In this document: positions 25,074 through 28,224 of the stretch, piece after piece
How the letters are laid out: each line of letters starts with the position of its first letter
Numbering within the stretch: position 1 is the first letter of the stretch
Assembly (NCBI GenBank): GCA_000827265.1
Contig: KN834809.1
Coordinates: 51,293-115,292, forward strand
Direction of reading: 5' to 3'
Source of the DNA: Collybiopsis luxurians FD-317 M1
Lineage: Eukaryota > Basidiomycota > Agaricomycetes > Agaricales > Omphalotaceae
DNA: 64,000 bases
The notes under the pieces: generated by a model
What the model was told of the DNA's origin: nothing
The model's database searches: none
The model's input: only the letters and a program-made list of their open reading frames with translations
Made by a program: the position numbers and the translations under genes

Positions 25074-26017
25074 CTAATCAAAGGACAACTCAATTAATTT
25101 GTCATGTTCAGCTTGAATGTCGAAAGGGATTCCAAATACTTCCTCCAGTTCCTGGGCATATAAATCCTCAACACACTTGATCTCCATCTGCTCCCGTATA
25201 TCCTGCAAGGTCAGAGCCATATGGAGGCTGGGATCTGCCAATTCATCTTCATTCTTTTCAACCAATGAATAGGTCAAAGGATCCTCCCCAGTGCGAACAA
25301 AGTAAGCATTGGGGTGACCAGATGAAAAGATCACTACAGGAGATGTATTGCGAGTCTCAACAAGAGTACTGGGAAGGGAAGTGGTATTGAGAGAAGGAAT
25401 AAAATTGGATAGGGAATTGGGAGTGGAGTTACTCTTCATCTCGAAAGGAAAGGATTCAGATGAAGGACCACCCCATATGTCCATAGGGGCAACGGCACTA
25501 GTAGTCACTGGTTCCAAGGGCAGATCTCCAATATTCAAGAGACAATGAAGCTCCTCATAAATGCTGTGAAATCGAGATAATTCAACTCCACGCCCCTGGG
25601 CCAAAGCTTCAGCAGCAAGTTGGAGGTTGTGGGACTCGACGAGAGAGTCTTGCAACTCCTTAATAACCCAATCTTGCTCCTTAATGGTCACTTCAGCAGT
25701 TTTGTGAAGATATCTGGCTTCCTGGGTGTCTCGCTAGGAAGGATCAGTGAGCCATGGAAACCCTATGACAAGTCGAAAAGATATACAGACAACTCGAGCA
25801 TCTTCTCTTCAAATTCCTGCATGGTTCGACTCAAGAGTTCTCACAACTTGTGAATCTCATCGGATTGACCCTTGACAACCCTCTGCAGTTGCCCAAACTC
25901 ACAACAAGCTTGGTTCACAAGGACATCCTGATCAGATACGACTTGAGAAATACTCTCAGCAGCATCAGTGAGATGATCTAGGAACAAAGCAGAGTCAAAG
26001 GGAGAAGGAGAAGCCAT
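25074..26017 (-). pseudogene. Antisense gene B inside the chromovirus (about 296 aa, one intron)
   Basis: Exon 1 runs 26017-25787 (ATG, 'ASPSPFDSALFLDHLTDAAE'). Donor GTATAT, 53-nt intron, acceptor TTCCTAG. Exon 2 runs 25733-25074, and 77 plus 219 codons fit in phase 0. The N-terminal half is helical and coiled-coil-like ('SQVVSDQDVLVNQACCEFGQ'). The C-terminal half has 'PVVIFSSGHPNAYFVRTGED' and ends 'GIPFDIQAEHDKLIELSFD'. I know no homologue. One in-frame TGA ('HKL-stop-ELL') lies where CGA is plausible. A TATA-like 'ATAAAAGG' sits about 55 bp upstream (26068-26077). The same gene, intron included, is at 41830-42773 in copy 2. It is intact apart from one stop, so it was under constraint until recently. 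Confidence 0.65.
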
Positions 26018-26319
26018 GACAAGGGAGGATCTTGAAATGAGGATAGGGAAATAGTCTCAAAAAGTGCCCTTTTATCAAAACAAGGATGCCCGATACAAGC
26101 CTAAATAGGGACAAAATGTGCAACCACATGCATATGCCTCATGGAAATTTTTTGAATACTTCGATTCTCAGGAGATCTCTTATTTTGAATCCAGGGCAAT
26201 TTCTTAGTTCACACAAAGGAGGGGCTCAAAAAAGAAAAAGATTTAAATTAGGAAGGAAACTACAAAAAATTTGGAATAGGAATCTATCTAGATACAAGAG
26301 ATTTTACGAGCCAAAATTG
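26018..26319. other. Spacer between antisense genes A and B
   Basis: About 300 bp separate the two antisense genes, and about 360 bp in copy 2. It contains the probable TATA-like promoter of gene B and a short direct match between the copies ('acatgcatatgcctcatgg'). Confidence 0.5.
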
Positions 26320-28224
26320 CTAGAAACTACTAGAGGAAGGCTTGGAAGGAGAGGCAGCAGCAAACTGCCCTCAGACTGACTCAAAAAGCTGCTGAAGTTA
26401 GGCAAGTTCTTCATCTCGCAACTTCAACTCTTCTGCTGTGACTCAATGGGCCTCCTCACTTGCATCCAGCTTCTCCTTCAACTCCTCTATCTCACCATCC
26501 TGAGCTTCCAGTGCTCCTCTTAGTTGTTGAACCTCCTGTAAGATACCCTATCAAAACACTAAAACAATTGAAAGGGAAGAAAGAAACTTACCGTCGACTG
26601 AACATCACCTGCAAAATGTCGAACAAAGGATTTGAGTCGATTCAGTTCTTCATCCTTATCCTTCAACTGCGCATCACATGAGACCACTTGTTCCTGCAAC
26701 TGAAGGTTTTCTGCCTTGGAATGCTCTGCCGATTGGGTCAAGGTTTGATACTCCCAATATACCCAGAGGAGCTCATCTTGCTGGAAATCGATGATGTTGG
26801 CAGAAGTCATATTGATAATGGATAGCGACTCAATGAATCACAGCAAGGACTTGCTTGAGAATGAAGGAGGTGGTTTGGAAGGGGAGTGCTGCTAAAGGAA
26901 CATGAAAGAACAGTGAATGACTTGATAAATCTGCAGAAGTATGGGAATACGCACCAATTGTTCTTTGAGGCCAGCGAACGCCCCCTGCATCAACCCATCC
27001 ACCAGAGCCCACAGAATCTGTTCAAGCATCTTCTTCCTGGGACTGGCAAACAACAATGCCATCCTTGTAACAACACATTCAACAGCAGTTTTTACCACTA
27101 GAAAGGTCAATTAGAATGGACAAACAAAAAAGTTAAAACTGAGACTTACTTTTGTCCCGAGTTGGGGAAGAACCATTGGAAGGGACTTGCTTGACAAGAG
27201 GTTCAAAAAACCACATCATCAAACCCAAAACCTCGCTATAGGATCAGGTATCGACGGCTTTCCAAACAGGAGTAGGGGGAGGTGGGGCTTCTTCTGGGTA
27301 ATCTAAATTCATCGCATCCAGTTCCTCCGGAGCTTCCATTTTCACATCGACATCCACAGGGACATGAACAACCTCCTTCCCCTTACAAGACAAAGTCAGA
27401 ACAACCTGTTTGCAACTTGGCTCCCCTAAATATATCCCCTCCTGTCGAAGGAGCTGACTCTTTCGAAAGGCATTTGAAGAGACGACTAGAAAGCTAATGA
27501 GTACTTATATTAACCACAGACTCATCAGACTCACCAGCTTTCCTTTTGCCCTCCGGAGCCCTTGGTCCACCCGACACTAATCCCAATTCCTCTGGATGAT
27601 TACAATAGTATGGAACATTTCCTAACCCCATCACTAAGGCAGTCCATTCCTCATTCCGAATAGTGAATAGCCCTTGACTCGACACAAAATGATAGGCAAC
27701 AACGAGGGGAGTTTAGTGAGAATATGGAATTGAAGGAGTCAAAAGACACTCTTGAAGGAACAGAACTTCTTACTAGAAGGATAGTTCACTTCACAAGTGG
27801 CACACGACAGGGAATTGGGGCAAAGGGAGCAAGTGGAATGGAGGTTATGTGAGGTGCAGTACTCGCAAGATGGGTAACATCCAAAAATACTCTTCCACTC
27901 ATCAGCAGCTACTCTATCCAAAACCTCGGGACTCAAATTGGCGAGATAAGCGTCCTTGTAAATAGGTTGGAGGCTGGTAGGAAGGGAAGAAGGAATGCAG
28001 TCCATAATGGAAATTGAGGGATAGTTGAGATGTGTACTGCACTCGAAGGCCACACATCACATTTTCTTGGCCGCTGGGGGAGCAGAGGGAAGAGCGTTGG
28101 AGAAGGGAACCAGCAATGCCAACTGGAGAGTCTGCAGAATTGTGATGATGAGTTGGGGCTTTGACCCTCCTGATTTACTAGACGACACAATGGGCTGGTC
28201 GGTAGACAATTGAGATGAAGACAT
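26320..28224 (-). pseudogene. Antisense gene A inside the chromovirus (about 560 aa, five exons)
   Basis: Exons: 28224-27535, 27485-27150, 27097-26955, 26891-26592, 26535-26320. Introns of 49-63 nt have donors GTGAGT, GTAAGT, GTGCGT and GTAAGT and acceptors TTTCTAG, TTTCTAG, CTTTAG and TTACAG; 'CTAAT' is a likely branch site in the second. Exon 1 encodes a Ser-rich start, then a Cys-rich module with paired cysteines ('CEYC', 'CSLC', 'CATC', about residues 112-140) like a zinc-binding domain, then 'WTALVMGLGNVPYYCNHPEE'. Exon 2 is acidic and Pro-rich ('DYPEEAPPPPTPVWK'). Exon 3 has 'LEQILWALVDGLMQG'. Exons 4-5 are a long coiled coil ('AENLQLQEQV', 'DKDEELNRLK', 'GEIEELKEKL'). Damage: TGA at 28057-28059 and a few others, and a one-base deletion near 27700. 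Copy 2 (43132-45042) supports every exon. Function unknown. Confidence 0.7.

What the first reader, a model, noticed from the sequence alone, without database searches (positions are those of the whole stretch)
25074..28224. Two intron-bearing protein genes encoded antisense inside a Ty3/gypsy chromovirus
Between pol and the 3' LTR the minus strand holds a 5-exon gene (about 560 aa: Cys-rich module, acidic Pro-rich linker, coiled coil) and a 2-exon gene (about 296 aa, helical). Splice sites, phases and exon contents are coherent. Spliceosomal introns normally cannot persist inside a retrotransposon because they are lost from the RNA intermediate; on the antisense strand they are invisible to sense-strand splicing. 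Antisense ORFs are known in a few plant gypsy elements. An antisense, multi-exon, two-gene cassette in a fungal chromovirus is not something I recognise. It could be a regulator of the element or a captured host gene pair.
Basis: partly seen in the sequence, partly recalled or inferred. Interest (0 to 1): 0.88.

Follow-up and report, generated by a model that had tools for sequence, protein, structure and literature searches.

The report
Spliced antisense genes in mushroom retrotransposon
A jumping element of the mushroom Collybiopsis luxurians carries, on its reverse strand, two protein genes that look real and are interrupted by introns, kept in working order by selection although the element copies itself through RNA; the proteins' job is still a guess.

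Summary
In 21 aligned copies, 104 of 105 introns are GT..AG and exons keep frame in 18 of 21 copies for each gene. Non-CpG transitions shared by two or more copies are strongly synonymous (omega about 0.21 and 0.14), private ones near neutral; shared transversions agree for gene 1 (0.26) but are too few for gene 2 (2 S, 8 N). Each gene has a conserved TATA-like box 50-60 nt upstream. Of 77 gene-2 loci found in the genome, 72 lie antisense beside pol; 69 also have gene 1. A divergent lineage keeps three intron positions. A second chromovirus family (pol 60% identical) has a related gene antisense downstream of pol, and one intact stand-alone relative sits among host-like genes. Antisense accessory ORFs are a known kind (plant Retand and Grande, Botrytis Boty brtn); introns and the two-gene layout are the new part. 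Gene 1 is 5-13 times more divergent between copies than its flanks. No RNA evidence was available; a nuclear regulator role is inferred.

The parts
14651..15350 (+). 5' LTR (end approximate)
   Evidence: 93.9% identical to the 3' LTR; 43 transitions and 0 transversions in 700 aligned positions
21674..22471 (+). reverse transcriptase part of pol
   Evidence: PF00078 E 3.3e-22
23898..24770 (+). integrase C-terminus with chromodomain (about 24600-24749); end of pol
   Evidence: SH3_Tf2-1 E 1.2e-18; Chromo E 4e-5, 23.9 bits, just under the cut-off of 25.1
28274..28279 (-). TATAAA of gene 1, 50-55 nt upstream of the ATG
   Evidence: in 21 of 21 copies; promoter function inferred
27535..28224 (-). 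gene 1 exon 1 (six-Cys module)
27150..27485 (-). gene 1 exon 2 (acidic, Pro-rich linker)
26955..27097 (-). gene 1 exon 3
26592..26891 (-). gene 1 exon 4 (coiled coil)
   Evidence: only weak, coiled-coil-type Pfam hits
26320..26535 (-). gene 1 exon 5 and stop codon
26070..26075 (-). ATAAAA of gene 2, 53-58 nt upstream of the ATG
   Evidence: in 21 of 21 copies (read by eye); promoter function inferred
25787..26017 (-). gene 2 exon 1 (helical)
   Evidence: low-confidence helical model
25074..25733 (-). gene 2 exon 2 and stop codon
   Evidence: relatives
28422..29121 (+). 3' LTR (end approximate), preceded by a G-rich polypurine-like tract
38435..45950 (+). second copy of the same element family: RT 38435-39223 and pol 40655-41521 on +, gene 2 at 42773-41833 and gene 1 at 45042-43140 on -, LTR piece 45402-45950

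Best explanation
The element carries two accessory protein genes on its minus strand between pol and the 3' LTR. Each is probably transcribed from its own TATA-type promoter and spliced by the host (inferred from sequence). Introns persist because the full-length sense RNA that is reverse transcribed shows them only as reverse complements, which the spliceosome does not read (established logic; here only the retention is shown). The proteins matter for the spread of the element: lineages show purifying selection and copies decay nearly neutrally after insertion (shown for gene 1, with fewer data for gene 2). Gene 1 (six-Cys module, acidic Pro-rich linker, coiled coil, basic patches, all read by eye) is most likely a nuclear, DNA- or chromatin-binding, dimerising regulator of the element's own expression or integration, with gene 2 (long helices and a conserved C-terminal part) as its partner. 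That functional step is inferred, at about 0.4.
For: Minus-strand period-3 signal with phase shifts at the introns. Exon and intron structure in 21 copies. Shared non-CpG changes: gene 1 transitions S175/N72 (omega 0.21), transversions S70/N90 (0.26); gene 2 transitions S15/N4 (0.14); private non-CpG transitions 0.82 and 1.1; the two wrong frames give 1.06-4.4 for shared non-CpG changes where defined. Shared against private non-CpG transitions: P 9e-8 for gene 1, 9e-4 for gene 2. TATA-like boxes in 21 of 21. 72 of 77 gene-2 loci have pol on the opposite strand, median gap 309 bp, 69 have pol and gene 1. Three unnamed ENA proteins (52-56% identical) run past the end of exon 1 with residues that fit GT-type donors at the same place. 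Divergent lineage L038 (gene 1 48%, gene 2 35%) keeps three clear gene-1 intron positions and both TATA-like boxes. A related antisense gene in a second chromovirus family, L036 and L037.
Against: No RNA evidence of transcription or splicing. Gene 2 shared transversions are 2 S to 8 N (omega 0.76, P 0.67), so its selection signal rests on 19 transitions. Private transversions give omega 0.43 in gene 1 and 0.30 in gene 2, not 1, so private and lineage changes are not cleanly separated. One of the non-coding controls (25073-24775) also gave 0.19 for shared transversions, on two changes. No Pfam or NCBIfam family explains either protein, nor any solved structure gene 1 (gene 2 not searched there); structure models are poor (pLDDT 49 and 47), so the regulator role rests on composition. 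13 of 87 gene-1 loci have no gene 2 beside them.
Confidence: 0.75

Rival explanations
1. Gene 1 comes from a host gene that an ancestral chromovirus captured with its introns by DNA-level insertion in antisense orientation; the intact stand-alone gene on contig C24 is the host parent.
For: L029 holds an intact two-exon stand-alone relative (genome-wide E 3.2e-5 with gene 1 exon 1) with CpG o/e 0.99, beside host-like genes (a cyclase-like ORF and an ORF resembling a phosphotransferase, both named by eye), and the RT and pol queries found nothing in the 10 kb read around it; one intron position is shared with L034, L036 and L037.
Against: The stand-alone protein is closer to family-2 genes (six-Cys region 40-42%, coiled coil 30-35%, second exon 43-47% in L031 and L032) than to gene 1 (24-30%), and in an unrooted tree with long branches it does not lie clearly outside both element families. 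No host relative of gene 2 was found.
Confidence: 0.3
2. The stand-alone gene is a domesticated copy of a chromovirus antisense gene (element to host), and the antisense gene itself is old in these elements.
For: Related antisense genes in two chromovirus families whose integrase ends are 60% identical; the stand-alone gene matches the family-2 type best (E 1e-36 against 1.8e-7 for the best gene-1 locus); it is intact and not CpG-depleted while two family-2 copies have CpG o/e 0.03-0.06.
Confidence: 0.35
3. The antisense transcripts act as RNA, for instance by forming double strands with the sense RNA and limiting the element, and the reading frames are incidental.
For: Antisense transcripts are discussed as regulators of other retroelements in PMC7264820 (passages).
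Against: Synonymous bias in the predicted frame only, exon length changes mostly by multiples of three, conserved splice sites. It could still be an added role.
Confidence: 0.05
4. The cassette is a nested DNA transposon or another inserted element rather than a part of the chromovirus.
For: It appears to have its own promoters and introns.
Against: The gap to pol is close to 309 bp at most of 72 loci, and the cassette lies beside pol at 72 of 77; no inverted-repeat pair of 40 bases or more was found around it (shorter ones not tested).
Confidence: 0.03

Closest known systems
Antisense additional ORFs between pol and 3' LTR (aORF-3R): maize Grande gene23, rice RIRE2, Silene Retand (PMC7264820: passages and section 5; PMC11963269: passages)
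   Same: Same place and orientation, present in most copies; own promoter and nuclear protein reported for Grande
   Different: Plant elements, Retand being non-chromovirus; described as ORFs; no word beginning with 'intron' occurs in either text; Retand proteins carry TRP28 (PF04195), which is not among the Pfam hits here
Boty-like chromovirus of Botrytis cinerea with antisense gene brtn (Zhao et al. 2011, not read; known here through passages of PMC7264820, PMC4227169, PMC8365987)
   Same: Fungal Ty3/gypsy element with chromodomain and an additional antisense gene
   Different: One named antisense gene, ascomycete host; homology and intron content not tested because neither the paper nor the sequence was held
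Antisense gene HBZ of HTLV-1 (named in passages of PMC11963269; that it is spliced is recalled)
   Same: Antisense accessory gene of a retroelement; spliced (recalled)
   Different: Animal retrovirus; no sequence relation tested or claimed
Opposite-strand accessory gene of the DNA transposon Sola1-1 in Ectocarpus (PMC12477816, passages)
   Same: Accessory gene read against the element's main gene
   Different: DNA transposon, which has no RNA step that would lose introns

Membership tests
Antisense additional ORF (aORF-3R) | Coding on the strand opposite to gag-pol, between pol and 3' LTR | tested here: met
Antisense additional ORF (aORF-3R) | Present in all or most copies of the element family | tested here: met
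   72 of 92 merged pol loci (from the first 98 of 136 rows) have gene 2; of the 20 without, 16 are pols of 41-60% identity and four of 80-88%
Antisense additional ORF (aORF-3R) | Transcribed from its own antisense promoter | not testable with these tools
   Conserved TATA-like boxes only
Ty3/gypsy chromovirus | RT and integrase with C-terminal chromodomain, LTRs | tested here: met
   RVT_1, Integrase_H2C2 and SH3_Tf2-1 above cut-off; Chromo E 4e-5 but 23.9 bits against a cut-off of 25.1; LTRs
Boty brtn family | Sequence homology to BRTN | not tested
   No brtn sequence was held
Zn2Cys6 fungal regulator | Match to PF00172, spacing CX2CX6CX5-16CX2CX6-8C (number and spacing recalled) | tested here: not met
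   No such hit at E <= 1 for gene 1 or the stand-alone protein; gene 1 spacing CX2CX8CX8CX2CX10C, stand-alone CX2CX6CX8CX2CX9C (read by eye)
Retand TRP28 proteins | PF04195 domain | tested here: not met
   Not among Pfam hits at E <= 1

The most novel reading that the evidence does not exclude
A clade of mushroom chromoviruses has long carried an intron-bearing, self-promoted antisense regulatory locus. Its gene 1 is kept as a pool of divergent variants shuffled among near-identical element backbones, as expected of a factor for self-recognition, mutual exclusion between elements or evasion of host silencing, and one such gene has become a stand-alone host gene.
Probability: 0.2. Interest if true: 0.85.

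Novelty: new variant of a known kind. Interest (0 to 1): 0.72.

Why it matters
Introns are expected to vanish from anything that replicates through RNA. Here five introns have been kept through the copying that produced dozens of loci, because they lie on the non-genomic strand, and selection on the proteins suggests that the element needs them. That gives a natural system for asking what antisense accessory genes of LTR elements do, which the plant literature calls unknown: one genome with 77 gene-2 loci found, a second element family with a related gene, and an intact stand-alone relative. Public annotation files the proteins as hypothetical proteins of the fungus, so similar genes may be hidden elsewhere.

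Tried and rejected
An intron at the GT near 27774 in the window copy was considered and dropped: other copies read through in frame. Weak Pfam, NCBIfam and PDB hits of gene 1 (peptidase S49 N-terminal E 2e-4, below its cut-off; SMC proteins; designed armadillo repeats, best E 6.6e-5 but with no stretch passing on its own; hantavirus nucleocapsid coiled coils) lie in the second half of the protein and were put down to helical composition. Structure prediction gave mean pLDDT 49.3 and 46.8, so no fold search was made. Literature: by titles and abstract starts, the searches listed no paper on a spliced antisense gene in a fungal LTR element; (retrotransposon + antisense ORF + basidiomycete) returned none. 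Subscription papers are mostly absent from that library, so this is weak evidence of novelty. Mantel tests (19 copies) show little correlation between pol and gene 1 (r 0.02-0.06), but pol carries so few transversions that this does not prove recombination. Clusters of gene 1 at one cut-off are three in exon 1 and six in exons 2-4, and they nest, so they give no sign of exchange inside gene 1.

Limits: the copies are the window plus the 20 best cassette matches, so they lean towards similar copies. The protein searches scored only the 7992 and 7986 candidates sharing most words. L020 lacks the end of gene 2; L020 and L025 were left out. In one search I used the first 98 of 136 rows and all rows (100; 96) (count), and merged neighbouring hits. 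One fourfold-site figure (exon 2) was computed in the wrong frame and is replaced. The second gene-1 intron of L038 could not be placed with confidence, and its gene-2 intron is only plausible. The far LTR of the second family was not looked for, and pol beside L034 was not checked.
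Full report
What is there. The window lies in an assembly of 64.26 Mb in 200 contigs. Protein names and contig lengths identify it as Collybiopsis (Gymnopus) luxurians FD-317 M1. An LTR element runs from about 14651 to 29121, with LTRs 93.9% identical. The LTRs differ by 43 transitions (19 scored as CpG-type, 24 not; some of the latter may be CpG sites lost on both sides, which I did not check) and by no transversion in 700 aligned positions. 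That suggests a fairly young insertion with much C-to-T decay; CpG observed/expected is 0.36 in the antisense region. RT, integrase zinc finger, integrase C-terminus and a chromodomain (just under the Pfam cut-off) are present.

Gene models. Between the pol stop at 24770 and the polypurine-like tract before 28422, the minus strand holds two genes. Gene 1 has exons 28224-27535, 27485-27150, 27097-26955, 26891-26592 and 26535-26320; gene 2 has exons 26017-25787 and 25733-25074. In the alignment of the window copy with 20 others, variability shows a three-base period on the minus strand whose phase shifts at the introns, as far as 120-nt windows resolve. Introns are GT..AG in 104 of 105 cases; the four of gene 1 vary between 48 and 66 nt, the one of gene 2 is 53 nt throughout. 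Gene 1 exon 2 ranges from 336 to 378 nt, and all but two copies (356 and 337) differ from one another by multiples of three. Public gene models agree in length and ends, for example a 575-aa gene 1 protein and 296-aa gene 2 proteins. The second copy in the same window shows matches broken at corresponding places.

Selection. CpG decay dominates the differences between copies, so I separated it. For non-CpG transitions shared by two or more copies, gene 1 has 175 synonymous to 72 nonsynonymous (omega about 0.21) and gene 2 15 to 4 (0.14); shared transversions are 70 to 90 in gene 1 (0.26) and 2 to 8 in gene 2 (0.76, too few to say). Private non-CpG transitions are 36 to 57 (0.82) and 15 to 31 (1.1). 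CpG-type transitions lie at 0.76-0.99. Reading the same columns in the other two frames gives 1.06-4.4 for shared non-CpG changes (gene 2 transversions undefined there, with no synonymous change); other classes scatter from 0.5 to 4. Three non-coding stretches read as codons gave 0.79-2.7 for shared non-CpG transitions and 0.19-3.1 for shared transversions, on 2 to 20 changes. Shared against private non-CpG transitions differ at P 9e-8 (gene 1) and 9e-4 (gene 2). Against this, private transversions give 0.43 and 0.30, below neutral. The overall picture is selection on proteins in the lineages that transpose, and release after insertion.

Promoters. TATAAA stands 50-55 nt upstream of the gene 1 ATG in 21 of 21 copies, inside an almost invariant stretch, and ATAAAA 53-58 nt upstream of the gene 2 ATG (window distances) in 21 of 21. 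Divergent lineage L038 has TATA-like boxes at both places. Transcription itself is untested.

Association with the element. Searching the whole genome by protein gave 87 merged gene-1 exon-1 loci, 77 gene-2 loci and, from the better 98 of 136 rows, 92 pol loci. Of the 77 gene-2 loci, 72 have pol on the opposite strand at the expected side (median gap 309 bp), 69 have both pol and gene 1, five have gene 1 only, and one has a same-strand pol within 3 kb. Of the 87 gene-1 loci 74 have gene 2; 13 do not, one of these being the stand-alone gene. Of the 92 pol loci 72 have gene 2; 16 of the other 20 are pols of 41-60% identity and four are at 80-88%.

Relatives. Named hits of the single-protein and profile searches are all C. 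luxurians; the rest are unnamed ENA or JGI records on mostly short contigs, probably environmental. Three of these proteins, 52-56% identical to exon 1, run on for a few residues past the exon end, and the residues there (G-K, G-E, G-T) fit GTAAG, GTGAG and GTACG at the same donor position (their DNA was not seen). Lineage L038 (pol about 80%, gene 1 48%, gene 2 35%) keeps the first, third and fourth gene-1 introns with little sequence left in common. A second chromovirus family (L036, L037; pol about 60%) carries a related gene antisense downstream of pol. Gene 1 itself hits L036 over the six-Cys region at E 4.7e-6 in a search of those two loci only, and does not hit L037, whose antisense stretch is 79% identical to that of L036 at the DNA level; neither locus appears in the genome-wide gene-1 search. 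The link runs mainly through a stand-alone gene on C24 (L029), which gene 1 exon 1 finds at E 3.2e-5 genome-wide and which in turn finds both the family-2 loci (E 1e-36, 3e-35) and dozens of gene-1 loci (best E 1.8e-7). L029 has two long open exons, CpG o/e 0.99 against 0.03-0.06 in L036 and L037, and an intron where L034, L036 and L037 have one. Whether the host gene came from elements or the reverse is open.

A divergent block. In the same 21 copies the mean pairwise transversion distance is 0.0062 in pol, 0.0061 and 0.0044 in gene 2 exons 2 and 1, and 0.011 in the LTR, but 0.030-0.082 in gene 1 exons and 0.038-0.073 in its introns; the spacer between the genes is intermediate (0.024). Fourfold-site transversions are 0.026 in pol and 0.010 in gene 2, against 0.086 in most of gene 1 exon 1, 0.051 in exon 2, 0.197 in exon 3, 0.133 in exon 4 and 0.053 in exon 5. 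So the diversity of gene 1 is several times older than that of its flanks. Exchange between co-packaged RNAs plus selection for variety would explain this, but I did not test it further.

How it works, step by step. Shown: coding capacity, intron structure, purifying selection (strong data for gene 1, thin for gene 2), position and orientation, conservation of boxes. Follows from established knowledge: a sense genomic RNA does not show the introns in a spliceable orientation, so they survive reverse transcription. Inferred: host transcription and splicing of the two minus-strand genes; nuclear regulator role of gene 1 from the six-Cys module, acidic linker, basic patches and coiled coil; partnership with gene 2.

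Compared with what is known. Antisense ORFs between pol and the 3' LTR are an accepted kind (PMC7264820: passages and section 5; PMC11963269: passages), and Boty in Botrytis is a fungal case with a chromodomain in gag-pol (PMC4227169 passages; PMC8365987 passages). PMC12477816 (passages) reports an opposite-strand accessory gene, but in a DNA transposon; PMC5408684 (passages) concerns additional ORFs of rotifer LTR elements and gave no hit for intron. Neither PMC7264820 nor PMC11963269 uses a word beginning with intron. I therefore call this a new variant: spliced, two genes, basidiomycete, with a stand-alone relative.

Noticed in passing
window 38435-45950: A second copy of the same element family with the same antisense two-gene layout; CpG o/e of 32000-45000 is 0.07, so it is probably older.
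   Followed up: partly
window 19611-20988: A direct duplication with 775-bp spacing around an N gap (20261-20385), possibly an assembly artefact.
   Followed up: no
window 14646-14650 and 29122-29126: Flanks GTCTG and GTCCA could be one 5-bp target duplication that has decayed differently on the two sides.
   Followed up: partly
L029:3113-5714: Intact stand-alone relative of gene 1 among host-like genes; short duplicates of part of a neighbouring cyclase-like ORF lie beside it.
   Followed up: partly
window 26240-28224 in 21 copies: Gene 1 exons are about 5-13 times more divergent in transversions than pol and gene 2 exon 2 of the same copies.
   Followed up: partly
P0119 (553 aa): A public gene model joins a DUF6534 protein to a gene 1 fragment, either a mis-joined model or a real fusion at an insertion.
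   Followed up: no
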